A stretch of DNA of 64,000 nucleotides from Actinoallomurus soli (GTDB lineage: Bacteria; Actinomycetota; Actinomycetes; Streptosporangiales; Streptosporangiaceae): NCBI RefSeq assembly GCF_024055715.1, contig NZ_JAMXMV010000001.1:124001-188000 (forward strand), read 5' to 3'. Positions 4,182 through 41,841 of this stretch are shown here, piece after piece. Position 1 is the stretch's first letter; every line of letters begins with the position of its first letter. Below the pieces are notes generated by a model, which was not told where the DNA came from, searched no databases, and saw only the letters and a program-made list of their open reading frames with translations. A program made the translations under genes and the position numbers.

Positions 4182-5246
4182 TCACCTGACGATGGGCCAG
4201 CAGAGCCACTTCGGGATGACGTACAGCTCGCCCTTGTTCGCCCGGAGCGCGGCGACGATGAGGTAGATCACGTGCGCGACGCCGTACGCCAGCATCGCCG
4301 GAATCGCGACGATCGCGCCGATCCCGAGTGTGGCCAGGGAGACGACGACGCACGCGATCGTCAACAGGAGGCTGGTCAGCGCGAGGTTCAGCGCCTGCGC
4401 GCCGTGGAAGCGCAGGTACGGCGACCGGTCCTTCTGCGCCAGGTAGACGATGAGCGGCGCGATGAGGCCGATCGCGAACTGCCCGAGGTAGGCGAGCAGC
4501 GCCCACGTGTTCTCGTCGGTCGCCGCGAACCCCTGGCGCGGGGGCCCGTATCCGTACGGGACGGGCGGCCCGGCGTAGGGCGGTCCGGCGTGCGCCGACC
4601 CGGACGGGTTCGGCGGCGGGCCGTAGGGCGGCGGCCCGGGCGGGTTCGGCGGCGGGCCGTAGGGCGGCGGGCCGGACCGCCCGCCGTAGGCGTGGGGATA
4701 GGGGCCCGGCTGCGGCGGCCCGGCGAATGAGCCGGGAGGCGGTCCGGCCGGCGCACCGTACGGGCGGGGGTGGGGACCGGTCTGCGGTCCGGCCGGCGCA
4801 CCGTACGGACCAGGGTGGGGACCGCTCTGCGGTCCGGCCGGGCCGGGGTGTGGGCCCGGGTGCGGCCCGGTCGGCCGGGCGTACGGGCCGGGGCGTGGGC
4901 CGGACGTCTGCGGGTCAGGAGCAGGACCGGGCTGCGGCGGACCGGCCGGAGCCGCCGGTCCGCTCATCAGCGGATCCGGCGGTTCGAAGGAGGGCCGCGA
5001 GTCGCGTCGCTCAGACGAACGCCGATCCTGCGGCCCGGAGGACGCCTTCGAGTCCTGGGGCGGAGGCGGCGGAGAGTCCTGCGGCCCGGATGGCGGCTGC
5101 GAGTCCTGGAGCTCAGGCGGCAGGGAGTCCTGGGGCTCGAAGGAGGGCCGCGAGTCCTTGGGCTCAGGCGGCAGGGAGTCCTGGGGCTCGAAGGAGGGCC
5201 GCGAGTCCTGGGGCTCAGGCGGCGGGGAGTCCTGCGCCTCGGTCAC
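4182..5246 (-). CDS. DUF4870 membrane protein with Pro-rich repeat tail
   Basis: The last 110 or so residues are a DUF4870 (Tic20-like) membrane domain: ENTWALLAYLGQFA, then IAPLIVYLAQKDRSPYLRFH, with three or four hydrophobic segments and the conserved RFHGAQALN. The first 240 residues are disordered and very rich in Pro, Gly, Asp and Ser. They begin with a 17-residue repeat built on PQDS and continue with GPHPGP-like runs. The start is GTG 5246, with AGGA upstream inside the preceding stop region. It lies 7 bp downstream of its paralogue, so the two form an operon. The function of DUF4870 is unknown; the tail may be a scaffold or wall-spanning segment. Confidence 0.8.
   Translation of the reverse strand: MTEAQDSPPPEPQDSRPSFEPQDSLPPEPKDSRPSFEPQDSLPPELQDSQPPSGPQDSPPPPPQDSKASSGPQDRRSSERRDSRPSFEPPDPLMSGPAAPAGPPQPGPAPDPQTSGPRPGPYARPTGPHPGPHPGPAGPQSGPHPGPYGAPAGPQTGPHPRPYGAPAGPPPGSFAGPPQPGPYPHAYGGRSGPPPYGPPPNPPGPPPYGPPPNPSGSAHAGPPYAGPPVPYGYGPPRQGFAATDENTWALLAYLGQFAIGLIAPLIVYLAQKDRSPYLRFHGAQALNLALTSLLLTIACVVVSLATLGIGAIVAIPAMLAYGVAHVIYLIVAALRANKGELYVIPKWLCWPIVR
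5116..5217. repeat. 51-bp tandem repeat inside the DUF4870 gene
   Basis: Two adjacent 51-bp units, starting at 5116 and 5167, differ at about one position (TTGGGCTC versus TGGGGCTC). Each encodes 17 residues of the form LPPEPKDSRPSFEPQDS. Degenerate further copies follow on both sides. It preserves the frame and changes only the length of the disordered tail. Confidence 0.75.
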
Positions 5247-13018: not shown

Positions 13019-14068
13019 ATGGCCGAATCAACTCATACCGGGGCTGCGCCCGACGGCGCGCCCACGCAGATCAAGATCGTGATCCCCGACGACCACTCGA
13101 TGGTCGCCCTGCTCGGCTCCCGTGACGAACTCCTCGAGGTCGTGGAGCGAGCCTTCGACAGCGACGTCCACGTCCGCGGCAACGAGATCACGATCACCGG
13201 TCGACCGGAAGAGACCGACCTCGCCGCGAAGCTGTTCGAGGAGCTGCTCGACCTGCTCAAGAGCGGCACGCCCATCACGCCCGACGCGATAGAGCGCAGC
13301 ATCGCCATGCTGCGCGCCGAGACGTCCGAGCGGCCGGCCGAGGTCCTCACCCTCGACATCCTGTCCTCGCGGGGCCGCACCATCCGCCCCAAGACGCTCA
13401 ACCAGAAGCACTACGTCGACGCGATCGACAAGCACACGATCGTGTTCGGCATCGGACCGGCGGGCACCGGCAAGACGTACCTGGCCATGGCCAAGGCCGT
13501 GAAGGCCCTGCAGGCCAAGCAGGTCAACCGCATCATCCTGACCCGCCCGGCCGTCGAGGCCGGCGAGCGGCTGGGCTTCCTGCCGGGCACCCTGTACGAG
13601 AAGATCGACCCGTACCTGCGGCCGCTGTACGACGCCCTGCACGACATGGTCGACCCCGACTCGATCCCCCGCCTCATGGCCGCCGGCACGATCGAGGTCG
13701 CCCCTTTGGCCTATATGCGCGGAAGAACCCTTAATGACTCCTTCATCATCCTCGATGAGGCGCAGAACACCTCGCCGGAGCAGATGAAGATGTTCCTGAC
13801 CCGGCTCGGGTTCGGGTCGAAGGTCGTCATCACCGGTGACGTGACCCAGGTGGACCTGCCGTCCGGGCAGCTGAGCGGCCTGCGCGTCGTCCAGGACATC
13901 CTCGACGGGCTCGACGACATCAGCTTCTGCACGCTGACCAGCAAGGACGTCGTGCGGCACAAGCTCGTGAGCGCGATCGTCGACGCGTACAGCCGGTACG
14001 ACGCGCAGTCCGATCACATCAAGCAGGGCGCGTCCGGTCGTGGCCCGCGCAAGCCACGGGGGCATTAG
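13019..14068 (+). CDS. PhoH-family ATPase
   Basis: A 349-residue PhoH-like P-loop protein, a family linked to RNA metabolism and often next to ybeY and era. The N-terminal 100 residues resemble a KH-like RNA-binding domain (DVHVRGNEITITGRPEET). The ATPase has Walker A GPAGTGKT (about residues 146-153), RPAVEAGERLGFLPG, and Walker B SFIILDEAQN (near residue 245), then GFGSKVVITGDVTQVDLP. The start is ATG 13019 with weak SD. Just after its stop lies a small insertion separating it from ybeY. Confidence 0.93.
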   Translation: MAESTHTGAAPDGAPTQIKIVIPDDHSMVALLGSRDELLEVVERAFDSDVHVRGNEITITGRPEETDLAAKLFEELLDLLKSGTPITPDAIERSIAMLRAETSERPAEVLTLDILSSRGRTIRPKTLNQKHYVDAIDKHTIVFGIGPAGTGKTYLAMAKAVKALQAKQVNRIILTRPAVEAGERLGFLPGTLYEKIDPYLRPLYDALHDMVDPDSIPRLMAAGTIEVAPLAYMRGRTLNDSFIILDEAQNTSPEQMKMFLTRLGFGSKVVITGDVTQVDLPSGQLSGLRVVQDILDGLDDISFCTLTSKDVVRHKLVSAIVDAYSRYDAQSDHIKQGASGRGPRKPRGH

Positions 14069-30295: not shown

Positions 30296-31182
30296 CGGCA
30301 TCCTAGAGCGGGTCGCAGTATCGAGAGGTCACGGCGCATGATCGAGAAGTAGTCGTCGGACGAGCCACGTTTCACGCCCTCGACCGGGTCGAGGACCTCG
30401 GTGCGCACGCCCGCCTCGTTCGCGAGCGTCGCGGCGGTCTTCGGGCTGGCGAGCGTCTCGGTGAAGACGGTGGTGGCGTGCGTACGCCGGACGAGGTCGA
30501 TGAGACTCGCCAGGCGGCCGGGTGAGGGCTCGGCCTCGGGGTCCAGGCCGGTGACGCCGACCTGCGTCAGACCGTACCGCTGGGCCAGATACCCGAACGC
30601 CGAATGGCTCGTGACGATCTCCTTGCGGGCGCAGTCCCGCAGGCCCGTACGGAACTCCCCGTCCAGGGCGGTCAGCTTCGTGACCACCTGCGCGGCGCGC
30701 GAACGGTACCCCGCCGCGTGCGCGGGGTCGATCGCGGCGAGGCGCTCACCGAGGGCGGTGGCCACGGTCGCGAACCTGTTCGGGTCCAGCCACAGGTGGG
30801 GGTCCTCGGCGGCGTGGCCGGTCTCGTCCTGCGGCGCGGGAAGCGTCGTGACCAGCGACGACGCGTCGATGGAGTGCTTCTTGGCGTGTTCGCGCACGGC
30901 CTTGTCGACGGCCGGCTGCACGCCCTTGATGTAGAAGGCCAGCTTCGATTCGCCCACGTCGATGACCTGGCGCGGGGTCAGCTCCAGGTCGTGGGGTTCG
31001 GCGCCGGGCTTGGTGAGGTTCTGCACGGAGCCGTTGGGGCCGGCGACCTGCTCGGCGAGCCACGCCAGCGGGTAAAAGGCCGCGACGATCTTGGGGTCAC
31101 CGTGGCCGCCGGTCCGCGCTCCGCAGGCGGTCGCCAGCAGCGCGGCGCCGAGCGCGAAGGGCAGGAGTCGTCGGTATCGCAC
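30292..31182 (-). CDS. znuA: Zinc-binding lipoprotein ZnuA
   Basis: A 296-residue cluster A-I/ZnuA solute-binding protein, anchored as a lipoprotein (N-terminus RYRRLLPFALGAALLATACG, lipobox Cys). Zinc ligands typical of the family are seen in GAEPHDLELTPRQ, AAEDPHLWLDP (with a short EDPH loop), SHSAFGYLAQRYGL and the late Asp/Glu region. It hands zinc to ZnuBC. The start is GTG 31182, placed 6 nt after a -10 element, so translation is probably leaderless; the longer upstream frame covers the Zur box. Confidence 0.93.
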   Translation of the reverse strand: MRYRRLLPFALGAALLATACGARTGGHGDPKIVAAFYPLAWLAEQVAGPNGSVQNLTKPGAEPHDLELTPRQVIDVGESKLAFYIKGVQPAVDKAVREHAKKHSIDASSLVTTLPAPQDETGHAAEDPHLWLDPNRFATVATALGERLAAIDPAHAAGYRSRAAQVVTKLTALDGEFRTGLRDCARKEIVTSHSAFGYLAQRYGLTQVGVTGLDPEAEPSPGRLASLIDLVRRTHATTVFTETLASPKTAATLANEAGVRTEVLDPVEGVKRGSSDDYFSIMRRDLSILRPALGCR

Positions 31183-31188
31183 GCTCTG

Positions 31189-31218
31189 AGTATGGATGAA
31201 TATGAAAATGATTGTCAA
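31189..31218 (-). promoter_or_regulatory. znu operon promoter
   Basis: On the minus strand TTGACA (31218-31213) and CATACT (31194-31189) are 18 bp apart, and the -10 ends 6 nt before the GTG. This is the best vegetative promoter in the window and predicts a leaderless znuA mRNA. Confidence 0.65.
31203..31217. promoter_or_regulatory. Zur box over the znu -35
   Basis: TGAAAATGATTGTCA is a near-palindrome matching the actinobacterial Zur consensus (TGAAAATGATTTTCA-like). It covers the -35 and the spacer of the znu promoter, so Zur-Zn bound here would block RNA polymerase. Confidence 0.75.
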
Positions 31219-31242
31219 AATCGCCCATGTCCGGGTTGTCGG

Positions 31243-31530
31243 TCAGCTCACCAGCTTCCCGACCGCGACCGCCAGGATGACCGCGGGGACCACGATCCTC
31301 ACCAGGCGATGGGACGCGCTCCGCGCCGGTGCGGCCAGGAACGCGAACCACAGCAGGAACGCCAGCACCGCGAGCAGCACGCCGCCGGCCACACCCGGCG
31401 CCGCCAGGCCCGCGATCAGCAGCGCGGGCAGGACCACCAGCGGGACCCACCGGGGAAGCTGCTGGAGGTAGAGGAAGAAGACGGCGCTGCGCTGCCGAAG
31501 TTTCGAATCCACGCCCCCATCGTCCCGCAT
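31243..31530 (-). CDS. Small membrane protein (DUF6703-like)
   Basis: A 95-residue protein with a short basic N-terminus (SKLRQRSAVFFLYLQQLPRW) and three hydrophobic segments: VPLVVLPALLIAGLAA, VLLAVLAFLLWFAFL and IVVPAVILAVAVGKLV. It resembles small actinobacterial membrane proteins of unknown function, DUF6703-like by pattern. The start ATG 31530 is tentative; GTG 31512 is possible. It lies divergently from the ABM-domain gene. Confidence 0.55.
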   Translation of the reverse strand: MRDDGGVDSKLRQRSAVFFLYLQQLPRWVPLVVLPALLIAGLAAPGVAGGVLLAVLAFLLWFAFLAAPARSASHRLVRIVVPAVILAVAVGKLVS

Positions 31531-31566
31531 CGGCGTCCCGCGCGGGGAGATCGCCTCGCCTACCGG

Positions 31567-31578
31567 CATGATGGACGG
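31567..31578 (+). promoter_or_regulatory. -10 element for a leaderless transcript
   Basis: CATGAT lies 6 nt before GTG 31579 with no SD. The following GGACGG-GTG is the same as at recO. Confidence 0.35.
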
Positions 31579-31863
31579 GTGCTGGCCATCACCCGCTACC
31601 GCGTTCCCGAGACCGAGACCGAGACGTTCGTCAAGACGGCGCACGAAGTGCTCCGCTCCCTCGCCGGCAGCCCCGGCCACCGTTCCGGCGGCCTCGCCCG
31701 GTCCGTCGACGAGCCCGACCTGTGGGCGATGGTGACCTACTGGGACGGCGCCGGCTACTACCGCCGGGCGCTCGGCGCGTACGACGTACGGCTGGCGCTC
31801 ATCCCGCTCTCGGCGCTCGCCATCGACGAGGCCGGGGCGTACGAGATCGTCGACCCTGAGTAA
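31579..31863 (+). CDS. ABM-domain (antibiotic biosynthesis monooxygenase-like) protein
   Basis: A 94-residue dimeric alpha/beta-barrel-type protein. LAITRYRVPETETETFVKTA opens the ferredoxin-like fold and DLWAMVTYWDGAGYYRRALG matches the strand-helix pattern typical of ABM proteins. Such proteins range from monooxygenases to heme degraders and stress proteins; no active-site clue is present. The start is GTG 31579. Confidence 0.6.
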   Translation: MLAITRYRVPETETETFVKTAHEVLRSLAGSPGHRSGGLARSVDEPDLWAMVTYWDGAGYYRRALGAYDVRLALIPLSALAIDEAGAYEIVDPE

Positions 31864-31976
31864 AGAGCGGGCTTCCCGCCGTCGAAGACCTTCTCTGCCC
31901 CCCGCGCGCCCCGCCACGGTCCTGGCAGCCCCTCCGATCATCGTCGTCGTACGGACGACGATCGTGGGGGGACGCC

Positions 31977-33170
31977 ATGCGCCGTGCCATGCTGCTCGCC
32001 GGAATCCTCGGAACACTGCTCCCGGGCGCACCGTCCGCCCAGGCGGACACCGACGTCCACTACCAGGGCCTCCGCATCCCGGTGCCCGCCGGATGGGAGG
32101 TCCACCGCCTCGGCCCCCGTTCCACGGACTGCCTCCGCTTCGACCGGCACGCCGTCTACCTCGGTCCCGCCGGCGAGAACCAGGACTGCCCCGCCCACGC
32201 CGTCGGCCGTACGACGGCCATCCACGTCGAACCGCTCACCGCGCAGACGAACGCCCTGGTGACCGGCATGCTGGCAGGACGACACCCCGAGAGCGGACGG
32301 CCGCCGGGCCTGCGGGTGCACGACCCGGCCGCCCACGAGATCCTGCTCGCGGTCCCGCAGGCCGGAGCGTTCATCACCGGCTCGTACGGCGCGAACGCCC
32401 AGGACCTGGAGCGCGTCCTGGCCCGCATCACCGTCGACCCGCCACCGGCCGAGGGCGCGACCGAGCGCCACACCGGCACCGCCCACCGCCGCTGGGTGCG
32501 GGGCGACGGATTCGACACCTGCCACGCGCCGTCCCTCGACGCGATGCAGGCGTGGCGCAAGGACTTCGTCGCCGCCAACGTCTACATCGGCGGTGTCTCC
32601 CGCGCCTGCCCGGACGGCAGGCTGTCCCACGACTGGGTCGCCGCCGTACGGGCCATGGGCTGGCGACTGATCCCGACGTACGTCGGCCCGCAGGCGCCGT
32701 GCGGCCCGCATCGCGTCAACTTCACCCCTGACAGCGCCGTCGACGACGCGAGAGCCTCGGCCGAAGACGCCGCCGACCGCGCCCGTCTCCTCGGACTGCG
32801 CCGGCACACGCCCATCTACTACGACATGGAGGCGTACGGCCGGCACGATCCCGTCTGCCGGGAGGCGGTCCTCGACTTCATCGACGCGTGGACCAGGAGA
32901 CTGCGCCGCCTCGGCTACGTGCCGGGCGTCTACAGCAGCGTCGCCTCGGGCATCCACGACCTGGCCGAGGCCAAGGGGATCAAGAAACCCGCCGCCGTCT
33001 GGTTCGCCCACTGGGACAAGAAGTCCGACCCCTGGAAAGACCGGTACATGCCACATGGTTGGTGGCCCGGCCACCGCCGCATCAAGCAGTACCGGGGCGA
33101 CCACCGCGAAACCCACGGCGGCTACACCCTGAACATCGACAACGACGCCCTCGACGGCTACGTCCGCTGA
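31977..33170 (+). CDS. Secreted DUF1906 glycoside-hydrolase-like protein
   Basis: A 397-residue protein with a signal peptide (RRAMLLAGILGTLLPGAPSAQA) and an N-terminal domain of about 130 residues without known function. A C-terminal DUF1906 (Rv2525c-like, GH25-like TIM barrel) domain starts at GFDTCHAPSLDAMQAW. Barrel features are ANVYIGGVSR, WRLIPTYVGPQAPCG, PIYYDMEAY, YVPGVYSSVASGIHDL and AVWFAHWD; the IYYDMEAY acidic residues could be catalytic. A cell-wall glycan is the likely substrate. The start is ATG 31977. Confidence 0.85.
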   Translation: MRRAMLLAGILGTLLPGAPSAQADTDVHYQGLRIPVPAGWEVHRLGPRSTDCLRFDRHAVYLGPAGENQDCPAHAVGRTTAIHVEPLTAQTNALVTGMLAGRHPESGRPPGLRVHDPAAHEILLAVPQAGAFITGSYGANAQDLERVLARITVDPPPAEGATERHTGTAHRRWVRGDGFDTCHAPSLDAMQAWRKDFVAANVYIGGVSRACPDGRLSHDWVAAVRAMGWRLIPTYVGPQAPCGPHRVNFTPDSAVDDARASAEDAADRARLLGLRRHTPIYYDMEAYGRHDPVCREAVLDFIDAWTRRLRRLGYVPGVYSSVASGIHDLAEAKGIKKPAAVWFAHWDKKSDPWKDRYMPHGWWPGHRRIKQYRGDHRETHGGYTLNIDNDALDGYVR

Positions 33171-33294
33171 CCAAATCCGTGAATCGGTCGGACCTCAATC
33201 AGGTTCGATCAAGGATGGGTAGTTCCCGGAGCCGATGAACTGCCGAATCTCCCGGATAAGGCCGCCGACTAGCGGAGTTTCGGACGATGTCTCC

Positions 33295-33324
33295 TCGACA
33301 TGACAGGCGATGTTTCTGTACCTT
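33295..33324 (+). promoter_or_regulatory. Putative promoter of the WXG/mycosin island
   Basis: TCGACA (33295-33300) and TACCTT (33319-33324) are 18 bp apart and lie 53 bp before the first island gene. No other gene occupies 33171-33377. Confidence 0.4.
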
Positions 33325-33377
33325 GACTTACTGTTTCCGGGCACGGGGGTGCGCAAGTCAAGAAGGGGGGCGGCCGC

Positions 33378-33827
33378 ATGCCGCCACTGAACGAAGGGGG
33401 CACGCAGCGGGGGGTGCAGTCTTCCCCGCCATGGGTCGGAGGGGGGGACCCAGACGTCAAGTGGGCACCATTCAAGATCGACCATGCCGCCTCAATTCTC
33501 GAGCGGGCGCTGGAACACCTGAGCGCCACCGGTGCACTTGACGAAGTTCAGACTCAAGGGCTCCTCACCGCTGCCGAACTCGGCAACTGGGACGCAGGGC
33601 AAACGCTCGCGGGCACCACCGAGGCTGCGTACAAGCACATCAGTGCGGTCTCCCGGGACTTCCTCACGCAATATGCAGCCGCGATCAGACTGCTACGCAG
33701 GACCGCAGCCCACTATTCCGGCACCGAAGAGGGCCTTGCACAACACATACGGCAGATCGGCGGCGGCCGCGAGCAGCCGACCCGGGCCCAGAGTCCGACT
33801 TGGGCCAACACGCCGTCGGCCGACTGA
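33378..33827 (+). CDS. WXG100-like secretion-associated protein
   Basis: A 149-residue helical protein. After a 35-residue Gly/Pro-rich start, the sequence HAASILERALEHLSATGAL, then LGNWDAGQTLAGTTEAAYKHIS, then YAAAIRLLRRTAAHYSGTEE forms a helix-W-x-x-G-helix arrangement like WXG100/ESX substrates. The C-terminal 20 residues are disordered. It starts the island, 15 bp before the PPE-like gene. Assignment to the type VII substrate class rests on pattern and neighbours. Confidence 0.6.
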   Translation: MPPLNEGGTQRGVQSSPPWVGGGDPDVKWAPFKIDHAASILERALEHLSATGALDEVQTQGLLTAAELGNWDAGQTLAGTTEAAYKHISAVSRDFLTQYAAAIRLLRRTAAHYSGTEEGLAQHIRQIGGGREQPTRAQSPTWANTPSAD

Positions 33828-33842
33828 TGCAGGGGACTCACC

Positions 33843-35216
33843 ATGGCCCTTGACCATCGAACCTTCGCCATCAAGAGCGGCGGACGGCCGCAGGGTGCCG
33901 GCTCTTACGGTGACGCCGACACCGTCCGAAGGATGATCGCCGCAACGCAGCCAGCGAAGATCACGACCGCAGCCGCGGCCTATGACGCCATGGGCACCGC
34001 ACTCAATGAGCTGCAGACAGCCCTCTACGATGCCGCGAAGGTCCTGGCTGGATGCTGGGGCGGCCCGGCAGCGGACAATGCCCAGCAGGTTCTGCGCTGC
34101 CTCTACACCACAGCCGAAGAACTCGTCATCCGCAGCAACGAGACCGCCAAGACGCTGCAATGGTATGGCGGGTCCATCCTGCCGATGTACCGAAGCATCC
34201 AGTGGCCAGAGAACACCCGGTCACCTGCCGCGACCACCGCAGCCGATCAAATCATGAAGAACCTCAACGAGCGGATCGCCCAGACCTGGGATGGCATGCC
34301 GCCCCAGATCGAAAGAACCCTTCCGCGCTTCGCGGGGAGGGGCGACGGCTCTCCCGATGCCGATGCCGATGCCGATGGAGCGGACCGGCTCGGTACGAGT
34401 GGCGCAAAGCGTCAAGCAGGTCATGTGAGGATAGGTGTTCCGCGCATGCCCGAGCACCCGTCGCGAACCTCAAGAGGAGGCCCTACTTCACGTTCACATG
34501 GCCTAGCCGAAAAGCCGATAGGCGATTCATCAGGCCTACCGAGCGGTCTCGGCACCGGACTGGCGGGAATGGCTCCTTCAGAGCCCGGCTCTCTCAAAGG
34601 CGGGCTTGGCCTCGGAGGCGGACCGCCGCTCGGCGATGTGCCCGCCGGACCAGGTGGCGCAGACCTTGGTGGGCCGATGGTGCAGGCCTTCTCCGGAACG
34701 ATCGGTCCAGGCGGCAGCCTCTTCGGCTCCGGTGCTGGCTCATCGCTCTTCAACGAAGAATCATCCCCGAGCCCGGGACGGGAGACAGGGACACGGCAAC
34801 GGCTGGGCGCTGGAGAAAGCCGAGCCGGAGCTCGCGGTAGCGGAGAAGCCGGCCCAATGATCTCCGGGGGTAGACGACCGGACGAGAAGGAGCGCCAGCG
34901 CACGGTTTGGCTGGTTGAAGACCAAGACGTTTGGACGGGCGAGGCGGAGGTGGCGCCTAGCGTGATCGGCGATGCTTCCGACCACCTCGGTCGCCGTAAG
35001 CAGGACGATGACGAGTTCCTGACCGTAGACGAGCTCCAGGATCTGCTCGACCTCGTCGATGAGCCGGCGAAGGAGACCGGTGAAGGAAGCAACCAGCCGC
35101 CGAGCCAAAGCGTCACAGGCACGAAGCCGCTGTCGGCAGGCGGGGATTATCTCATTGATCTTGGTGACGATATCTTCGGTCCTGATCATTTCGACTCCAA
35201 CCTACGCCGAGACTAG
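33843..35216 (+). CDS. PPE/EspB-like protein with Gly-rich C-terminus
   Basis: A 457-residue protein. The N-terminal 150 residues are helical and WXG-like (TTAAAAYDAMGTALNEL, VLAGCWGGPAADNAQQVL with a W-G-G turn). The middle is a long low-complexity Gly/Ser/Pro segment (GSLKGGLGLGGGPPLGD), as in EspB or PPE proteins. The C-terminus is acidic (EFLTVDELQDLLDLVDEP). The last 158 bp overlap the mycosin gene in another frame. It is a likely secreted substrate processed by the next gene product, as EspB is by MycP1; this is an inference. Confidence 0.65.
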   Translation: MALDHRTFAIKSGGRPQGAGSYGDADTVRRMIAATQPAKITTAAAAYDAMGTALNELQTALYDAAKVLAGCWGGPAADNAQQVLRCLYTTAEELVIRSNETAKTLQWYGGSILPMYRSIQWPENTRSPAATTAADQIMKNLNERIAQTWDGMPPQIERTLPRFAGRGDGSPDADADADGADRLGTSGAKRQAGHVRIGVPRMPEHPSRTSRGGPTSRSHGLAEKPIGDSSGLPSGLGTGLAGMAPSEPGSLKGGLGLGGGPPLGDVPAGPGGADLGGPMVQAFSGTIGPGGSLFGSGAGSSLFNEESSPSPGRETGTRQRLGAGESRAGARGSGEAGPMISGGRRPDEKERQRTVWLVEDQDVWTGEAEVAPSVIGDASDHLGRRKQDDDEFLTVDELQDLLDLVDEPAKETGEGSNQPPSQSVTGTKPLSAGGDYLIDLGDDIFGPDHFDSNLRRD

Positions 35217-36348
35217 TCCCCGCACAGAGGAATGGTGGTTCGGGACCTGGGACATCCAGCAAAAGGTATGGCCAATCACCACTGGTAAAGGCGTCACCGT
35301 CGCAGTCATCGACGGTGGGGTCAACGCTAAAGTTCCAGACCTGCGCGGCGCAGTCATCCCTGGAGCCGATATCGATGCGGGCAAGGGAGATGGGCGCATC
35401 GACTTCGACACTCGGGAGAACGGGCATGGAACCAGCATGGCGGCCCTGATCGCCGGCCAAGGGAGCGGAACCGGAATGGTCGGTGTCGCCCCAGGTGTGA
35501 AGATAATGCCCATCCGTGCGCAAGGCGGTACCGAAGAAATCGAGGCCGGTATCCGTTACGCCGCCGACCACGGCGCCAAGGTGATCAACATTTCCATGGG
35601 CGATCCCATCCCCAGTTGGGCCGGTGGTTGTGGCCTCTCGACCGAAAGAACTATTGCTTATGCACTTCATCACGACGTGGTGATCGTCGCTTCTGCTGGT
35701 AATGACGGCGATATGGATAATATGCCGGATTGGCCGGCGCAGTGTCCTGGAATACTGGCCGTCGGGGCGGTCGATTACCAGTTCACGCCATGGATAAAGA
35801 CCCAGCGTCAAAGTTATGTGGCGGCCGCCGCTCCGGGTGTACATGTCGGGTCGGTGACTAAGGATGGCGCTTTTCTTCCTAATTGGAATGGAACCAGCCA
35901 GGCGTCCGCATTGACCGCGGGTGTGGTCGCGCTTGTGCGATCAAGATTTCCAAAGATGCCGGCGCGTGAGGTGGTGCAACGCATCATCGGTACGGCCCGA
36001 GACATCGGATCCCCTGGCCGAGACGATGAGACAGGATACGGCCTCGTCCGCCCGTACCATGCTTTGGTAGACAAAGTAGTGGCCGATGCTCCTAATCCCG
36101 TCTACGCGGCATGGGATAAGGCGCAGGCGGCCAACCGATCGAGCGTCAACCAGCCTGAGTCTTCCCCGCGTCCCTCGCCGCCTGCTGCCCGCAGTAGGAA
36201 TCGATCTTCGAATACTATGACTTACATTATCTTGGTGTCGGTTGCCTTGTTCGCGGTAGGCGCTGCGCTGCTTACGGCCTGGGCGAGTAGGCAACGTCTT
36301 GGTTACGCTCGCAATAAGGTCTCTCGGGATAGCAAGTCAACACGGTAG
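35059..36348 (+). CDS. Mycosin-like subtilase (type VII secretion-associated)
   Basis: A 429-residue membrane-anchored S8 serine protease. An Arg-rich N-terminus leads into a signal segment (IISLILVTISSVLIIS), then the catalytic triad D85 (VAVIDGGVN), H123 (ENGHGTSMAALIAG) and S280 (NWNGTSQASALTAG), with Asn in ASAGNDG for the oxyanion hole. A Pro-rich linker and a C-terminal transmembrane helix (YIILVSVALFAVGAALLTAW) complete the mycosin plan. ATG 35059 lies inside the upstream gene (158-bp overlap); no later start retains the signal peptide. Confidence 0.88.
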   Translation: MSRRRRPVKEATSRRAKASQARSRCRQAGIISLILVTISSVLIISTPTYAETSPRTEEWWFGTWDIQQKVWPITTGKGVTVAVIDGGVNAKVPDLRGAVIPGADIDAGKGDGRIDFDTRENGHGTSMAALIAGQGSGTGMVGVAPGVKIMPIRAQGGTEEIEAGIRYAADHGAKVINISMGDPIPSWAGGCGLSTERTIAYALHHDVVIVASAGNDGDMDNMPDWPAQCPGILAVGAVDYQFTPWIKTQRQSYVAAAAPGVHVGSVTKDGAFLPNWNGTSQASALTAGVVALVRSRFPKMPAREVVQRIIGTARDIGSPGRDDETGYGLVRPYHALVDKVVADAPNPVYAAWDKAQAANRSSVNQPESSPRPSPPAARSRNRSSNTMTYIILVSVALFAVGAALLTAWASRQRLGYARNKVSRDSKSTR

Positions 36349-36392
36349 GGATTTTTGCATCCGTGTGTATGCAGCAACGGTAAGGATGGCCA

Positions 36393-36662
36393 GTGGGAAT
36401 TGATGACCACTCCAAGGAAGACCGTCTCGCACGGTTAGAGGATCAACTCGCCAAAAAAGGGATCACTGTAAGATCCAGGAATGACGATGTGATCGTAGTC
36501 GTCAATGGCCACGGGAAGTTGGTAAGTGTCGAAATCGATCCTAAGGCTGTACGAAACATCCGGACTTCGAAGTTGGAGATAACGGTAACGGAAACGATCA
36601 AAAGTGCGCGAGCTAAGGCGGTTCAGCTAAGAGAACTGGCTTTGCGACGCTTGGAAGGGTGA
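36393..36662 (+). CDS. YbaB/EbfC-family protein
   Basis: An 89-residue protein with the YbaB core: a coiled N-terminal helix (HSKEDRLARLEDQLAKKG), strands VIVVVNGHGKLVSVEIDP, and a C-terminal basic helix (ETIKSARAKAVQLRELAL). Canonical YbaB is a nucleoid-associated dimer; divergent copies accompany WXG/ESX-like loci in actinobacteria, where their role is unknown. GTG 36393 follows AAGGAT. GC content drops markedly from here to 38.69 kb. Confidence 0.7.
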   Translation: MGIDDHSKEDRLARLEDQLAKKGITVRSRNDDVIVVVNGHGKLVSVEIDPKAVRNIRTSKLEITVTETIKSARAKAVQLRELALRRLEG

Positions 36663-36669
36663 TATCGCT

Positions 36670-37029
36670 ATGAACGGTGAGGGTGAGGAACTGATCTCCC
36701 GCATGGAGGCAGCGATTTCCGATGCGTATGACAGAACCCGCCGAGTCAACGCCTTGGTCAACGCGGTCAACCGAGCGGCTCGCGACGTTGAGATTACCGT
36801 GGCTGGCTTTTCGAAGTGGGGTCTCAGGCAAGAGATGGAGAACGGGATTGGAATGGTCATTGTGAACGGCAATGGCGAGCTAGTCCGAATCGATTTTGAT
36901 CACGAAAAGGTGTCAATATCTGATCCGTCTCAATTGGGTAAGCGCATCGTGTCCGCTGTCAACGTTGCAGAAGAACGTGTTCGGAAGGTTCGCCTGCAAC
37001 GCGTAAAACAGTCATTGCGGGGTCGGTAG
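36670..37029 (+). CDS. YbaB/EbfC-like protein
   Basis: A 119-residue second YbaB-like protein with a helical start (ELISRMEAAISDAYDRT), strands around DVEITVAGF and GMVIVNGNGELVRIDFDH, and a basic C-terminal helix (VAEERVRKVRLQRVKQSL). It follows its paralogue by 7 bp and may form a heterodimer with it, which is an inference. Base composition is far from the genomic average. Confidence 0.65.
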   Translation: MNGEGEELISRMEAAISDAYDRTRRVNALVNAVNRAARDVEITVAGFSKWGLRQEMENGIGMVIVNGNGELVRIDFDHEKVSISDPSQLGKRIVSAVNVAEERVRKVRLQRVKQSLRGR

Positions 37030-37066
37030 TCGTGGTTCTCGGGCGTGGAGTGCGGAGGCTGAAGAG

Positions 37067-37414
37067 GTGACCGATAAGGATCGGGTGCGCCAGAATGCTG
37101 GATACATTCGAGCAGCTGGCGACGAGATGAATGACATCGCCAACCTGTGGGTTGACGCGGCTTCGAAGCTACGGCTTGACGCCAAGCTTCCTGAAGATGC
37201 GATGGGTACTATAGGGCAAAGGTCTCACTTCGCCGTCAACTACAACATTCAGATCGCCGATGTTGGCGACGAAAAGCTGATTCAATCCTCCACTAGTGTG
37301 TGCGCTGCGAGGGATGCCCTATGGGCTGTGGCAGATACCTATGAGGGCGCAGAGACCAAGGGTAAGGAGGCGGCCCGGGGAACTTATCCTTCTAGGAAGC
37401 CGATGCCAAATTAG
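37067..37414 (+). CDS. EspC-like/WXG-type secretion-associated protein
   Basis: A 115-residue protein resembling the EspC/DUF2580 ESX-secretion-associated group. It has two helices: the first around GYIRAAGDEMNDIANLW, the second around SSTSVCAARDALWAVADTYEGAE. IGQRSHFAVNYN lies between them. YEGAE-x-x-x-K-E near the end resembles the C-terminal Y-x-x-x-D/E targeting motif of type VII substrates (Y at YEGAE), so export is plausible. The start is GTG 37067. Confidence 0.55.
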   Translation: MTDKDRVRQNAGYIRAAGDEMNDIANLWVDAASKLRLDAKLPEDAMGTIGQRSHFAVNYNIQIADVGDEKLIQSSTSVCAARDALWAVADTYEGAETKGKEAARGTYPSRKPMPN

Positions 37415-37442
37415 CCTTTAGCAATCTAGGAAAGGGAGTAGG

Positions 37443-38093
37443 TTGGCTGCAGTTGCTGCGGAGGCCGGCGCGGGCGCTGAAGGTCTTCAGGAGGTTAAGA
37501 AAGAAGTTCTAGATAGCATAAAAAAGGCTGCGGCGCGTGTCGCGCTGGCGGCCGAGGCTGTCCGTGCCAATAGCTATGTCGAAGAAATCCGCCCTAATTT
37601 GAATGCGATAGTTACTGCTGCGAGAGCCTGGGCTGTTGCTGCAAGTGACCTCTCCAACTCGCAGAATAAGTTTGCCCACACTGTTGATCAACTCGGTAAT
37701 TACTGGGCCGGCCCCGCTTACACCAACTTTCGTAGCTATGCTGCGGTCAATGCGGCTACGACGGGGAAGAACTCGGCCACGCTATTTAATGTGGGAATGC
37801 AGCTGATTGGCATCTATAATAACGTAGCGGCTGTTTATAATTCGGCAGTTCAAATGGTATATGACACGTACGCGAAGATCGCCGAAGCCGAGGCAGGCGA
37901 TGGCAAAGATGCAATCAAGGCGGCCATCGTTGCTTATTCATCACATATGTCGGAGCGTCATCAGACGGCAACGAGGTTGGTGCAGGACGGCCAATCTCAG
38001 CTCGCTTCCTTGGTGGCGGTCCTGAGTCAGTTCACTCCACCTGAGGCATTCCCTTCGGGTGTGGGTGATAAGACGAGGTGGACGGCTATTTAG
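37443..38093 (+). CDS. WXG100-like (W-A-G motif) large secretion-associated protein
   Basis: A 216-residue helical protein. The first half has long Ala-rich helices (LDSIKKAAARVALAAEAV), the centre NYWAGPAYTNFRSYAAVN carries a W-A-G turn between helices, and the remainder is helical with VYDTYAKIAEAEAGD. This fits a WXG100-superfamily protein of extended length rather than a toxin; no enzymatic motif is seen. The start is TTG 37443 with GGGAG upstream. Local GC near 37.8 kb is about 38% over 60 bp. Confidence 0.55.
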   Translation: MAAVAAEAGAGAEGLQEVKKEVLDSIKKAAARVALAAEAVRANSYVEEIRPNLNAIVTAARAWAVAASDLSNSQNKFAHTVDQLGNYWAGPAYTNFRSYAAVNAATTGKNSATLFNVGMQLIGIYNNVAAVYNSAVQMVYDTYAKIAEAEAGDGKDAIKAAIVAYSSHMSERHQTATRLVQDGQSQLASLVAVLSQFTPPEAFPSGVGDKTRWTAI

Positions 38094-38119
38094 GATCTTT
38101 CCTTCCAGGAGCGCATACA

Positions 38120-38692
38120 GTGAAGCTTTTCGATCAAATGAGGCAGCCTGTCCTGCTTATTGTTTCTGCTGTCGCTTTGAGCGGTATTTCTGGGTGCTCG
38201 AGTGCGAAACATGATCACACGGCCACCACCTCTAAACGGCCATTGCAAGCTCCGAACTCAGTGAAGCCTATAGCTGATCCGTGTCGTCTATTGAGTCCCC
38301 AGGTTGCCGCGAATGTCGTCGGCGTCTCTAAGGGGGCTACTGTGCGGATAGATTCAACTAGTTCGGATAGTTCATGTGAGTGGACCAACGCGTCGTCGTC
38401 GGATCCGAAATTGGGCAGATTGACAGTGAACGTTCGAAACGAATATGAGACTCCTCTTACGCCTGAGAGTCTTTATTCATCATTTGCGAACACCTCTTGC
38501 AATAAAATCTTTTCTGTCGCAGACGGCAAGGCTTGCTGGCAGTCGGATGGCGCTCTTTTTCAGATCTATTTTGTTCGGGGGAAGGTATTCGGGTGGGTGC
38601 TGTATGACGGATATCGGGCCGTGAGTATGTCCAGTCAGCGTCGTGCTACTACGGCTGAGCTTATAGCGCGCGATGTTCTGAGTAGGATTTAG
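38120..38692 (+). CDS. DUF3558 lipoprotein
   Basis: A 190-residue lipoprotein. After KLFDQMRQPVLLIVSAVALS comes the lipobox G-I-S-G-C. The body has the DUF3558 pattern: DPCRLLSPQVAANVVG, SCEWTNA, and GKACWQ. DUF3558 proteins are common in actinobacteria, often beside WXG or signalling genes, with unknown function. The start is GTG 38120 with CCAGGA upstream; an in-frame ATG at 38138 is possible. It closes the low-GC island. Confidence 0.75.
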   Translation: MKLFDQMRQPVLLIVSAVALSGISGCSSAKHDHTATTSKRPLQAPNSVKPIADPCRLLSPQVAANVVGVSKGATVRIDSTSSDSSCEWTNASSSDPKLGRLTVNVRNEYETPLTPESLYSSFANTSCNKIFSVADGKACWQSDGALFQIYFVRGKVFGWVLYDGYRAVSMSSQRRATTAELIARDVLSRI

Positions 38693-39023
38693 CGTAGTGA
38701 TCCGAGAAATTCCCGAAAGCGCGGCGAGCTCCTCGATGGGCCGGTCGGCGCGGAGGAAGCATGTCCCTCCGCCGATCCCGGAGGGCTTCAACTGGTCCCC
38801 TGCAACCTCATGCATCGCCCGTGACGATCGTTCGGCCTCGGAGGTCGGGGAGAGAGGAGGGGGAGGATCGGCGGGCGGCGTCGCGGAGTATTGGAGCGCG
38901 GGGCTCTCGATCCTGTCGCTAAGCTGATACCGGGCGCCGTGGCCAGGCTCGCAGGTCGGCCGCAGGCGCCGAACCTCATCTACGCGGAGAACCCGCCGAC
39001 CGCCAGCCGGATGGAGATCACTC
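38693..39023. other. Intergenic stretch before glyS
   Basis: No intact gene is seen in these 331 bp. GC content jumps back to the genomic level at about 38.7 kb, marking the right island edge. A minus-strand protein-like frame (…GGGTCFLRADRPIEELAAL…) without a start codon spans about 38.70-38.83 kb. TAAGCT near 38.92 kb could be the glyS -10, leaving a leader of about 100 nt; no riboswitch or T-box is recognised. Confidence 0.45.
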
Positions 39024-40412
39024 ATGGCCCGTCGTTCCGAATTGATGGAGACCATCGTCAACCTCAGCAAGCGCCGAGGCCTGGTCTTCCCATCGAGTGA
39101 GATCTACGGCGGTCTCCGCGCGTCCTGGGACTACGGCCCGCTCGGCGTCGAGCTGAAGAACAACGTCAAGCGCCAGTGGTGGAAGTCCATGGTGCAGGGC
39201 CGCGACGACGTCGTCGGCCTCGACTCCTGTGTGATCCTCGCCCGTGAGGTCTGGGAGGCGAGCGGCCACGTCAAGGAGTTCGTCGACCCGCTGACCGAGT
39301 GCCAGTCCTGCCACAAGCGGTACCGCGCCGACCACCTCATCGAGGCGTACGAGGAGAAGCACGGCAAGGCGCCGGAGCACGGCCTGGCCGACCTCGTCTG
39401 CCCCAACTGCGGCACGCGCGGCGCGTTCACCGAGCCGCGGATGTTCAACGGCCTGCTGAAGACCTACCTCGGCCCGGTCGAGGACGAGTCCGGCCTGGCG
39501 TACCTCCGGCCGGAGACGGCCCAGGGCATCTTCATCAACTACGCGGCCGTCCAGCAGGCCGCCCGGCGCAAGCCGCCGTTCGGCATCGGCCAGATCGGCA
39601 AGTCGTTCCGGAACGAGATCACGCCGGGCAACTTCATCTTCCGTACGCGCGAGTTCGAGCAGATGGAGATGGAGTTCTTCGTCGAGCCCGGCACGGACGA
39701 GGAGTGGCACCAGTACTGGATCGACACCCGTCTCCAGTGGTACGTCGACCTGGGCATCTCCAAGGAGAACCTCCGGCTCTACGAGCACCCGAAGGAGAAG
39801 CTGTCCCACTACTCGAAGCGGACCGTGGACGTCGAGTACCGCTTCAACTTCCAGGGCAGCGAGTGGGGTGAGCTGGAGGGCATCGCGAACCGCACGAACT
39901 TCGACCTGTCCACGCACGCCAAGCACTCCGGTCAGGACCTGTCGTACTACGACCAGGAGAAGGAGCAGCGGTACGTCCCGTTCGTCATCGAGCCGGCGGC
40001 CGGCGTCGACCGGTGCGTGCTGACGTTCATGATGGACGCCTACAGCGAGGACGAGGCGCCGAACGCCAAGGGCAAGATGGAGAAGCGCGTGGTCATGCGC
40101 CTCGACCACCGGCTCGCGCCGGTCAAGGTCGCGGTGCTGCCGCTGTCGCGGAACGCCGACCTGTCGCCGAAGGCCAAGGACCTCGCCGCGCAGCTGCGCC
40201 GCAACTGGAACGTCGAGTTCGACGACGCCGGCGCGATCGGCCGCCGCTACCGCCGCCAGGACGAGATCGGCACCCCGTACTGCGTCACCGTCGACTTCGA
40301 CACGCTCGAGGACAACGCGGTGACCATCCGGGAGCGCGACTCGATGGCCCAGGAGCGCATCGGCCTCGACCAGGTCGAGGCCTTCCTCGCCACCCGCCTC
40401 CTCGGCTGCTGA
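39024..40412 (+). CDS. glyS: Glycyl-tRNA synthetase (alpha2 type)
   Basis: A class II aminoacyl-tRNA synthetase attaching glycine to tRNA-Gly. The 462-residue protein has [22 protein letters not shown] at the N-terminus, a zinc-type CQSCHKRYR with LVCPNCG insertion, motif 2 [26 protein letters not shown], the YRFNFQG and [10 protein letters not shown] segments, and a C-terminal anticodon-binding domain. The alpha2 form is the rule in actinobacteria. The start is ATG 39024. Confidence 0.97.
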
Positions 40413-40434
40413 CGAGCGAGACCGGCGATCTTCA

Positions 40435-40478
40435 CGCTACGCCGGTGACCGTCCCCCGGGGCGGTCACCGGCGTAGCG
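40435..40478. terminator. 17-bp stem terminator after glyS
   Basis: CGCTACGCCGGTGACCG and its perfect complement flank a 10-nt loop, 22 bp past the glyS stop and about 20 bp past the end of the convergent MHS gene. It can terminate both directions. Confidence 0.85.
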
Positions 40479-40497
40479 CGTTCTTACCGGAGCGGCG

Positions 40498-41841
40498 TCA
40501 CGCCGAGACGGGTTCGGTGCCCGAGGGCTCCTCGCGTACGGTGTCGCGGCCGAGGGGCAGGTGGCGGGTCTCGCGGAAGGCCAGCAGCACGACCAGCGTG
40601 GAGACCACGGCGATGGACATCAGGTACACGCCCGGGGCGAGGGAACTGCCCGTGGCCGAGACCAGCCCGGTGGCCACGAACGGCGCCGTGCCGCCGCACA
40701 GCACGTACGCCGCGGTGTAGCCGATCGCCGATCCGCTGGCCCGTAGCCGGGCGGGGAACATCTCCACCAGCGCCGGGACGTTCGAGCTGCCGATCACCGC
40801 GACCAGTACGGCCAGCAGGGACGTGCCGACGACCGCCCCCGCGAAACCGGTCTTCATCAGCCAGAACGCCGGAAGCGGCGCGACCACGAACCCGGCGCAG
40901 GCGACGAGGAGCAGCGGCTTGCGGCCGTACCGGTCACTGGCCGAGGCCGCGAACGGGCAGGCGACGCTGTAGGCCAGCATCGACACGACGTTCGTCAGCT
41001 GAGCCTGGCTCTTGGAGTAGCCGAGCTCCTCCGACATGTACGCGATCATGTAGCTGCTCATCAGGTAGTACCCGATCGCGTTCGTGATGCTGTACCCGAA
41101 CAGGGTGGCGATCTGCCGGCCGCACTTCCGTACGGCGTCGCGCAGCGGGGTCTGCGCGATGTCGTCCTTGCTTTCCAGCGCCCGGAACACCGGCGTGTCC
41201 TCGACGCGGGACCGCAGGTACAGGCCGATCAGGCCGAGCGGCGCCGCCAGGAGGAAGGGGATCCGCCAGCCCCAGCTCTGTAGCGCGGGCGTGCTGAGCG
41301 TGGAAGTGAGCAGGAAACCGAGACCGGAGCCCGCCACGCTGGCCAGCCCGACGGTGACCGGTACGGCCGACGCGAACCGGGCGCGCCGGCCCTCGGGCGC
41401 GTATTCCATGATGAACGCCGACGCGCCGGTGTACTCGCCGCCGGTGGAGAAGCCCTGCACGCAGCGGAGCAGGAACAGCAGGACGGGCGCCGCGACGCCG
41501 ATCACCGCGTACGTCGGCAGCAGCCCCACGAGGAACGTGGCGCCGCTCATCGCCAGGACCGTCAGCGCCAGCATCCGGTTGCGGCCGATCCGGTCGCCGT
41601 ACCGGCCGAAGAACGCGGCGCCCAGCGGACGGGCGACGAATCCGCCCGCGAAGATCGCCCACGTGGCCAGCAGCGCCGCGGTCCGGTCGTACGTGGGGAA
41701 GAACCGTCCGGCGATCGTCGCGGACATCACGGCGTAGGCGGCGGAGTCGAACCACTCGACGAAGTTGCCGATCGCGGAGGACAGGATGACCGTACGGCGG
41801 ACCGTGCGCGGGTCCGCCGGGGGAGCGGGGGTCGCGGTCAT
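40498..41841 (-). CDS. MHS-family MFS permease (ProP/ShiA-like)
   Basis: A 447-residue metabolite:H+ symporter. MHS features are SSAIGNFVEWFDSAAYAVMSA, GRYGDRIGRNRMLALTV, LRCVQGFSTGGEYTGAS and WRIPFLLAAPLGLIGLYLRSRVEDT. About 12 transmembrane helices are expected. I choose ATG 41841 with AGGAGA upstream; ATG 41856, overlapping the ligase stop (ATGA), is possible. It lies after an acyl-CoA ligase, so it probably imports the organic acid that the ligase activates. Confidence 0.9.
   Translation of the reverse strand: MTATPAPPADPRTVRRTVILSSAIGNFVEWFDSAAYAVMSATIAGRFFPTYDRTAALLATWAIFAGGFVARPLGAAFFGRYGDRIGRNRMLALTVLAMSGATFLVGLLPTYAVIGVAAPVLLFLLRCVQGFSTGGEYTGASAFIMEYAPEGRRARFASAVPVTVGLASVAGSGLGFLLTSTLSTPALQSWGWRIPFLLAAPLGLIGLYLRSRVEDTPVFRALESKDDIAQTPLRDAVRKCGRQIATLFGYSITNAIGYYLMSSYMIAYMSEELGYSKSQAQLTNVVSMLAYSVACPFAASASDRYGRKPLLLVACAGFVVAPLPAFWLMKTGFAGAVVGTSLLAVLVAVIGSSNVPALVEMFPARLRASGSAIGYTAAYVLCGGTAPFVATGLVSATGSSLAPGVYLMSIAVVSTLVVLLAFRETRHLPLGRDTVREEPSGTEPVSA

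What the first reader, a model, noticed from the sequence alone, without database searches (positions are those of the whole stretch)
33295..38692. Orphan WXG/PPE-like, mycosin and YbaB island without a type VII core
Seen: a WXG-like protein, a PPE/EspB-like protein, a mycosin with intact Asp-His-Ser triad and C-terminal anchor, two YbaB/EbfC-like proteins, an EspC-like protein, a W-A-G protein and a DUF3558 lipoprotein, all on one strand with one promoter candidate. GC falls sharply after 36.35 kb (about 38% over 60 bp near 37.8 kb) and recovers at 38.7 kb. No EccB/C/D/E is present in the window. Known: mycosins normally act with an ESX core and MycP1 cleaves EspB. Inference: a transferred module that either borrows a core encoded elsewhere or uses the mycosin and WXG-like proteins in a different role, with paired YbaB proteins as chaperones or regulators.
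Basis: partly seen in the sequence, partly recalled or inferred. Interest (0 to 1): 0.8.

Follow-up and report, generated by a model that had tools for sequence, protein, structure and literature searches.

The report
Coreless type VII secretion cargo island
A soil actinobacterium carries, away from its type VII secretion machines, a small inserted island with a conserved secreted-pair-plus-protease front and an exchangeable cargo set behind it, which probably feeds extra cargo to a machine encoded elsewhere in the genome.

Summary
The eight genes are real (33378-38692, one strand) and inserted as a block: homology to three relatives lacking it stops at the upstream gene's stop codon (33170-33172) and resumes at 38914-38983. 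The genome, Actinoallomurus by its named kin, has two EccB, two EccD and six EccC loci over cut-off, none in the window. The island has two parts. The head (PE-like, PPE-like, mycosin) has relatives inside core ESX loci. The low-GC tail (two YbaB-like, EspC-like, PPE-fold W-A-G protein, DUF3558 lipoprotein) is a separate cassette: in 24 mapped W-A-G loci YbaB and EspC-like genes accompany it in 24, the head lies upstream in 16, none was found in 7 (one cut by a contig end). At a second site one of five species has this cassette, four another: it was exchanged. Most likely two heterodimers leave through a core in trans, the YbaB pair acting as chaperones. ESX-5a and EspA-EspC-EspD are known kin; cassette swapping behind an own mycosin is the new variant.

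The parts
33169..33377 (+). 5' border of the insertion and leader of the head; the last ~70 bp before the PE-like gene look alike in the three occupied site A copies
   Evidence: homology to four sites without the block ends at 33168-33172; leader compared by eye
33378..33827 (+). PE-like protein, 149 aa, with Y-x-x-x-E export-type motif
   Evidence: invariant Glu, Y-x-x-x-E in 10 of 12 chosen homologues, H-x-x-x-E in 2 of 12; Pfam PE only E 0.16
33843..35216 (+). PPE/EspB-like protein, 457 aa: WXG-type N-domain, Gly/Pro-rich linker, acidic tail with W-L-x-E-D/N-x-x-V/M-W motif
   Evidence: motif in 4 of 4 aligned
35059..36348 (+). mycosin (subtilase) with signal region, Asp-His-Ser triad and C-terminal membrane segment; longest ORF, true start probably downstream
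36393..36662 (+). YbaB-like protein 1, 89 aa, proposed chaperone
   Evidence: PF02575 E 1.8e-12
36670..37029 (+). YbaB-like protein 2, 119 aa, proposed chaperone partner
   Evidence: PF02575 E 2.3e-7
37067..37414 (+). EspC-like helical hairpin, 115 aa, with Y-x-x-x-E export-type motif
   Evidence: Y-x-x-x-D/E in 10 of 10 chosen homologues; PF10824 in 3 of 10, not the window member; fold pLDDT 84
37443..38093 (+). W-A-G protein, 216 aa, PPE-like fold
   Evidence: W-x-G in 10 of 10 chosen homologues; fold pLDDT 87; four top PDB hits are PPE41 chains, E 2.8e-3 to 6.5e-3
38078..38692 (+). DUF3558-like lipoprotein
   Evidence: PF12079 E 7.5e-7, under the cut-off; lipobox-like I-S-G-C read from the sequence
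38693..38983 (.). 3' border; homology to four sites without the block resumes at 38914-38983, before glycyl-tRNA synthetase
   Evidence: no border repeat beyond 8 bp, no tRNA in the window

Best explanation
A core-less accessory island of a type VII (ESX) secretion system. The head makes a secreted PE/PPE-like heterodimer and a membrane-anchored mycosin. The cassette makes a second secreted heterodimer (EspC-like with a Y-x-x-x-E signal, W-A-G protein with W-x-G) held secretion-competent by a YbaB-like pair, plus a surface lipoprotein. Both pairs go out through an ESX core encoded elsewhere, and the mycosin probably trims the PPE-like protein or another exported product. The cassette is a separate unit, exchanged behind conserved heads at fixed chromosomal sites. 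Shown by computation: insertion, gene families, conserved motifs, folds of the cassette pair, cores elsewhere, cassette modularity and one exchange. Inferred: dimer pairing, export, chaperoning, cleavage, and which core is used.
For: Cores in the genome: six EccC loci over cut-off, two EccB, two EccD over cut-off, none in the window; the C33 core has a mycosin of the same type. Seven genes in the same order beside EccC in L069 and L073. Clean insertion borders. Y-x-x-x-D/E in 10 of 10 EspC-like and W-x-G in 10 of 10 W-A-G homologues. W-A-G model: PPE41 of PE25-PPE41 complexes ranks first (E 2.8e-3, prob 1.00). EspC-like: weak profile matches to PE25 (E 0.007-0.05), PE25/PE5 fold matches at TM about 0.5. 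Triad 65 of 65. Map of 24 W-A-G loci: YbaB 24 of 24 (two in 19), EspC-like 24 of 24, DUF3558 19 of 24, head upstream 16 of 24. Mycosin tree: site A one clade (100/95), site B one clade (98/98); the A. iriomotensis site B head with this cassette type is sister (100/94) to a site B head with the other type. Papers: EspL binds EspD, and a chaperone complex for EspA-EspC and others is proposed (PMC6319747, passages); YbaB-like EspH/EspD/EspL proposed as dedicated chaperones (PMC6107294, passages); the core-less ESX-5a region works through the ESX-5 core (review PMC4852179, abstract and passages).
Against: No experiment. PE and PPE Pfam scores are below cut-off; the PPE-like profile finds no convincing solved structure. 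No Foldseek match of either model reaches E 0.001, and the first hit of the EspC-like model is occludin. The first profile hit of the EspC-like alignment is an iota-carbonic anhydrase (E 1e-4, no stretch passing alone), ahead of PE25. The W-A-G profile also meets SipD at E 0.003-0.01. The window EspC-like protein itself hits no EspC model. YbaB could bind DNA. Head and cassette are not obligately linked (no head found in 7 of 24), which weakens the idea that the mycosin acts on this cassette. Pairing was not modelled.
Confidence: 0.7

Rival explanations
1. The cassettes are antibacterial effector-immunity sets: W-A-G (or W283 in the other type) acts on competitors and the lipoprotein or small membrane protein protects the producer; hypervariability comes from an arms race.
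For: Cassette proteins 23-30% identical between own genome and G091 while the flanking GlyRS is 98% identical; W283 of the own genome's other cassette ends in a hydrophobic glycine-rich segment with a small membrane protein beside it; a sister species has at the same site a 590-aa WXG100-domain protein with a long C-terminal tail.
Against: No confident toxin domain: single-member hits at E 0.005 (HBL, EspC-like set) and 0.011 (Toxin_10, W-A-G set) look like chance among helical proteins; three W283-like proteins hit no toxin family. DUF3558 found in 19 of 24 cassettes. W-A-G has no strong membrane segment.
Confidence: 0.27
2. YbaB1 and YbaB2 are nucleoid-associated regulators that silence the low-GC island rather than chaperones.
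For: Both hit the YbaB/EbfC DNA-binding family; the cassette is the lowest-GC stretch of the window; loss of EspL lowers whiB6 expression (PMC6319747, passage).
Against: Both score under the NCBIfam nucleoid-protein equivalog cut-off, 23.7 and 24.8 against 49.45 bits; a YbaB lies beside W-A-G in 24 of 24 mapped loci; for EspH and EspL the cited papers favour chaperoning (PMC6107294, PMC6319747, passages).
Confidence: 0.15
3. The mycosin and WXG-like proteins work without any ESX core, for instance the mycosin as a general surface protease.
For: Several heads stand without EccC in the fetched stretch, and some without a recognised cassette, such as L096 and L097.
Against: The genome has full cores; export-type motifs conserved; related heads inside core loci.
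Confidence: 0.08
4. A decaying relic of a transferred ESX flank with no present function.
For: Low GC, diverged proteins, no sigma-70-like promoter found.
Against: All eight frames open, triad and export motifs intact, head kept in three species at site A.
Confidence: 0.07

Closest known systems
ESX-5a/b/c duplicated esx regions of mycobacteria
   Same: Core-less duplicated part of an ESX locus far from the parent; ESX-5a feeds a subset of substrates to the parent core, b and c by extrapolation (PMC4852179)
   Different: Those are an esx pair plus pe/ppe; here there is an own mycosin, YbaB-like proteins and an exchangeable cassette
EspA-EspC-EspD with EspL, and EspE-EspF-EspH (ESX-1 substrates and chaperones)
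   Same: Large partner, EspC-like small partner, YbaB-like chaperone(s)
   Different: No EspA/EspE-type Pfam family among the hits of W-A-G (that such a family exists is recalled); 216 aa; linked to a mycosin and a DUF3558 lipoprotein; outside mycobacteria
mycP1 / espB / espL neighbourhood of ESX-1 (gene order recalled, from no call)
   Same: Mycosin near an EspB protein and a YbaB-like protein
   Different: No core genes beside it; two YbaB-like genes
LXG effector with small helical partners (T7SSb; recalled)
   Same: Cargo plus small helical partner plus a possible immunity gene
   Different: PPE-like fold hits rather than LXG; no confident C-terminal toxin domain seen

Membership tests
T7SS mycosin (TIGR03921) | family score over cut-off 278.75 | tested here: not met
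   260.7 bits; in the genome 2 of 13 matches pass, and a core-linked one also misses it with 264.8
T7SS mycosin (TIGR03921) | Asp-His-Ser triad, signal region and C-terminal membrane anchor | tested here: met
   triad 65 of 65 aligned ORFs, oxyanion Asn 59 of 65; membrane segment about residue 390
Complete ESX system | EccB, EccC, EccD in the locus | tested here: not met
   none in the window; EccE search uninformative
PE family PF00934 | Pfam score over cut-off | tested here: not met
   12.7 of 22 bits
PE/PPE-type heterodimer | one partner with Y-x-x-x-D/E, the other with W-x-G | tested here: met
   physical pairing not tested
PPE family PF00823 | Pfam score over cut-off | tested here: not met
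   33843-35216 scores 15 of 26 bits; WXG100 27.1 of 27.3, 31.5 in the genome search
EspC family PF10824 | Pfam match | tested here: inconclusive
   window protein none; 3 of 10 homologues, best 7.3e-6
EspA/EspE family (recalled) | Pfam match of the W-A-G protein | tested here: not met
   not among the 19 families hit at E up to 1 by 10 members; WXG100 in 7 of 10
YbaB/EbfC PF02575 | Pfam score over cut-off | tested here: met
   47.7 and 31.3 against 25.5 bits
YbaB/EbfC nucleoid protein (TIGR00103) | equivalog cut-off 49.45 | tested here: not met
   23.7 and 24.8 bits
ESX-5a-like core-less accessory region | counterpart of part of an ESX locus, away from the core | tested here: met
ESX-5a-like core-less accessory region | export depends on a core in trans | not testable with these tools
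   needs a core deletion strain

The most novel reading that the evidence does not exclude
A mobile, modular type VII accessory system: a fixed PE-PPE-mycosin head serves as docking platform for exchangeable secreted-pair cassettes with their own chaperones and surface lipoprotein, spreading between chromosomal sites and species and borrowing resident ESX cores, as satellites of a secretion machine; the mycosin may mature the swapped cargo.
Probability: 0.35. Interest if true: 0.78.

Novelty: new variant of a known kind. Interest (0 to 1): 0.6.

Why it matters
It extends the detached EspA-EspC-EspD idea beyond mycobacteria to soil actinomycetes, gives a set of natural combinations of head, cassette and core, and makes testable how substrates with their own mycosin find a core, and whether paired YbaB-like proteins are chaperones.

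Tried and rejected
EccE: TIGR03923 rang in no genome, controls included, so nothing is claimed. Mobility signs at the window island: no tRNA in the window, no repeat over 8 bp shared by the two borders, only short two-copy repeats inside, no Rfam family at 31000-41000. In A. rupiterrae L104 an integrase lies upstream and a tRNA-Arg downstream of the module; no copy of the tRNA end was found, but a 16-bp direct match (4546-4561 and 13964-13979, E 0.006) flanks integrase plus module and was not pursued. A regular-expression scan of catalytic motifs caught wrong places and was replaced by an alignment count. First GC-based gene calls put wrong-strand ORFs over low-GC genes and were replaced by same-strand listing and homology. 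Anti-phage reading: of 8 island proteins only the mycosin matched PADLOC, to subtilase and IetS models. One of three clade tests did not finish. Site B was not examined in G052, G122 and G123; G052 has a head with the other cassette type on a 16-kb contig without either site's flanks. In the 47-locus scan absence of EccC was not taken as proof of an orphan, since several stretches are short or a core lies just beyond.
Full report
What is there. Eight open frames on the + strand at 33378-38692 lie between an Rv2525c-like glycoside-hydrolase gene (31977-33170) and glycyl-tRNA synthetase (39024-40412). GC falls step by step: PE-like 0.66, PPE-like 0.64, mycosin 0.59, then 0.50-0.55 for the five following genes, against 0.70 for the window; the lowest 2300-bp stretch of the window lies there.

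Genome context. The window is C11:124001-188000 of a 9.4-Mb genome. By matching contig lengths, genus genomes G115, G091 and G121 are Actinoallomurus purpureus, A. spadix and A. iriomotensis; another, G123, is recorded as Actinomadura sp. DC4. The own genome has 13 mycosin matches, 8 of them above 170 bits, six EccC loci over the cut-off plus weaker ones, two EccB, and seven EccD matches of which two pass. C33 and C2 each hold EccB, EccC, EccD and a mycosin. None of EccB/C/D is in the window.

Insertion. Glycyl-tRNA synthetase was found in 7 of 8 genus genomes. The island lies between it and the hydrolase gene in 3 of 7 (own, G091, G115). In 3 of 7 (G120, G122, G123) homology to the window stops at 33170-33172 and resumes at 38914-38983, with about 90-280 bp between. 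In 1 of 7 (G121) about 2 kb of other DNA fills the place, carrying a 590-aa ORF with a WXG100 domain over the cut-off and a long C-terminal tail, so this site also received another T7SS-type gene.

Two parts. Between own and G091 islands one DNA alignment at 85%, flank included, runs to 34317, through the PE-like gene and the N-terminal part of the PPE-like gene; then only the mycosin aligns (35226-36116, 65%), then nothing until 38867, where 97% identity resumes. Protein identities: PE-like 68, PPE-like 55, mycosin 56, YbaB2 30, EspC-like 28, DUF3558 26, W-A-G 23 percent. A second head lies at site B, between ispE and an ABC-F ATPase gene, in 5 of 8 genus genomes (the other 3 not examined there). 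Four of these 5 carry another cassette (SAV_915-like, DUF6317, WXG-like W283; small membrane protein or 280-aa protein relatives in 3 of the 4) and 1 of 5 (G121) carries the window's type. In a tree of 65 mycosin-like ORFs, site A (3 rows, 100/95) and site B (5 rows, 98/98) are each one clade, and the G121 site B head is sister (100/94) to a site B head with the other cassette. The cassette type changes at least twice over 17 labelled rows. So a cassette was exchanged while the head stayed. Holding site A together with three core mycosins of the genus is rejected (p-AU 0.005), with site B too (0.013); both groupings were named after the tree was seen, and a third test did not finish. Site A heads sit nearest to A. 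rupiterrae L104 and A. harenae L060 (94/90, under the star threshold), which suggests arrival from outside the genus's own core.

Relation to full ESX loci. The genome-contig scan gave 47 loci by record title: 35 Actinomadura, 8 Actinoallomurus, 1 Spirillospora, 3 metagenome bins. EccC lies in 17 of the 47 held stretches. Seven of the eight genes, PE-PPE-mycosin-YbaB-YbaB-EspC-WAG, lie in the window's order beside EccC in L069 and L073, without DUF3558; L102 and L100 hold YbaB, WAG, DUF3558, EspC in another order, EccC being cut at the edge in L100.

The cassette as a unit. At E up to 1e-10 the W-A-G profile matches 91 of 341 family genomes, but only 20 reach 100 bits (23 matches): 4 of the genus and 16 of one other genus, among them the 10 that built the profile; the weaker ones are mostly partial matches in longer frames. 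In a phylum sample it matches 1 of 396, our own. The tool scored at most 8 candidates a genome, so misses are possible. I mapped all 23 strong matches and one weaker (G308), 24 loci; several repeat loci of the earlier scan. YbaB beside W-A-G 24 of 24 (two YbaB genes in 19); EspC-like 24 of 24 (L044 and L136 weak, L136 about 2.6 kb off); DUF3558 19 of 24 (8 of these at 30 bits or less); head directly upstream 16; L120 has a convergent head and a contig end upstream; no head found in 7, of which L135 has only 1.2 kb held upstream before a contig end. EccC reaches 4 of 24 stretches. Assignments use profiles iterated on these loci, E up to 1e-3. The three headless cassettes that I read gene by gene (L124, L127, L133) sit among genes that look unrelated to T7SS, a reading by eye. 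Cassette GC was lower than head and both 3-kb flanks in 17 of 17 loci measured, in L073 by a hair.

Mechanism. EspC-like homologues keep Y-x-x-x-D/E in 10 of 10; PE-like homologues keep Y-x-x-x-E in 10 of 12 and H-x-x-x-E in 2 of 12; W-A-G homologues keep W-x-G in 10 of 10. These are the two halves of the known T7SS export signal (recalled). The W-A-G model (pLDDT 87) finds PPE41 chains first (E 2.8e-3 to 6.5e-3); the EspC-like model (pLDDT 84) finds PE25 and PE5 at TM about 0.5 among other helical hairpins, none significant and occludin first. By sequence profile W-A-G reaches WXG100 proteins at E 1.7e-5 and PPE41 at 0.0025, also SipD at 0.003-0.01; EspC-like reaches PE25 at 0.007, behind an iota-carbonic anhydrase at 1e-4 without a stretch passing alone. 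Two PE/PPE-style pairs are likely, not shown. For the YbaB pair the closest studied case is EspL, which stabilises EspE, EspF and EspH and binds EspD, known to stabilise EspA and EspC; a joint chaperone complex is that paper's model (PMC6319747, passages read). YbaB-like EspH binds EspE and is needed for EspE/EspF secretion (PMC6107294, title, abstract start and passages). For a core-less region served by a distant core the model is ESX-5a (review PMC4852179, abstract and passages read). That the mycosin cuts the PPE-like protein is inference from MycP1 and EspB (recalled).

Print. Searches of the held library: mycosin with YbaB (1 paper, on EspH), orphan mycosin in Actinobacteria (0), Esp chaperones (75 papers, 15 listed), T7SS with Actinomadura (2, not on this by title), T7SS/Streptomyces/mycosin/WXG100 (2, listing only, one on plasmid-borne ESX evolution, PMC4791881, not read), ESX-5a duplication (8, 7 listed), T7SS/YbaB/actinobacteria (0), Actinoallomurus secretion (2, not on this by title). 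None of the listed titles describes this island; subscription papers and preprints are not held.

Verdict. Observation confirmed; interpretation partly supported; a new variant of a known kind. On rechecking, one headless locus was found cut by a contig end, and the hydrophobic tail of W283 proved strong in only 1 of 3; I lowered the effector-immunity rival from 0.30 to 0.27 for the latter and left the other odds.

Noticed in passing
L054:6826-8598 (G121, site A): A 590-aa WXG100-domain protein with a long C-terminal tail fills the place where the island sits in other species.
   Followed up: partly
L031:5750-8613 (own genome, C7): Other cassette type behind the site B head: SAV_915-like, DUF6317, WXG-like protein ending in a hydrophobic glycine-rich segment, small membrane protein, 280-aa protein; possibly a membrane-acting effector set.
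   Followed up: partly
L104:4546-14198 (A. rupiterrae): Phage-type integrase and HTH gene directly upstream of the module, tRNA-Arg downstream, and a 16-bp direct match outside both (4546-4561, 13964-13979); possible integrative element.
   Followed up: partly
L060:7042-7653 and L101:13836-14678: DDE transposase-type genes next to the module.
   Followed up: no
L095 and L096: Heads with two mycosin genes in tandem and no cassette family found.
   Followed up: no
window 33300-33377: Leader before the PE-like gene (TTGAC ... GGCACGGGGGTGC) alike by eye in the three occupied site A copies, not seen at the five site B copies; possible promoter or regulator site.
   Followed up: partly
L124, L125, L127, L128, L133, L134, L135: Cassettes of the window's type with no PE-PPE-mycosin head found in the fetched stretch (L135 cut by a contig end).
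   Followed up: partly
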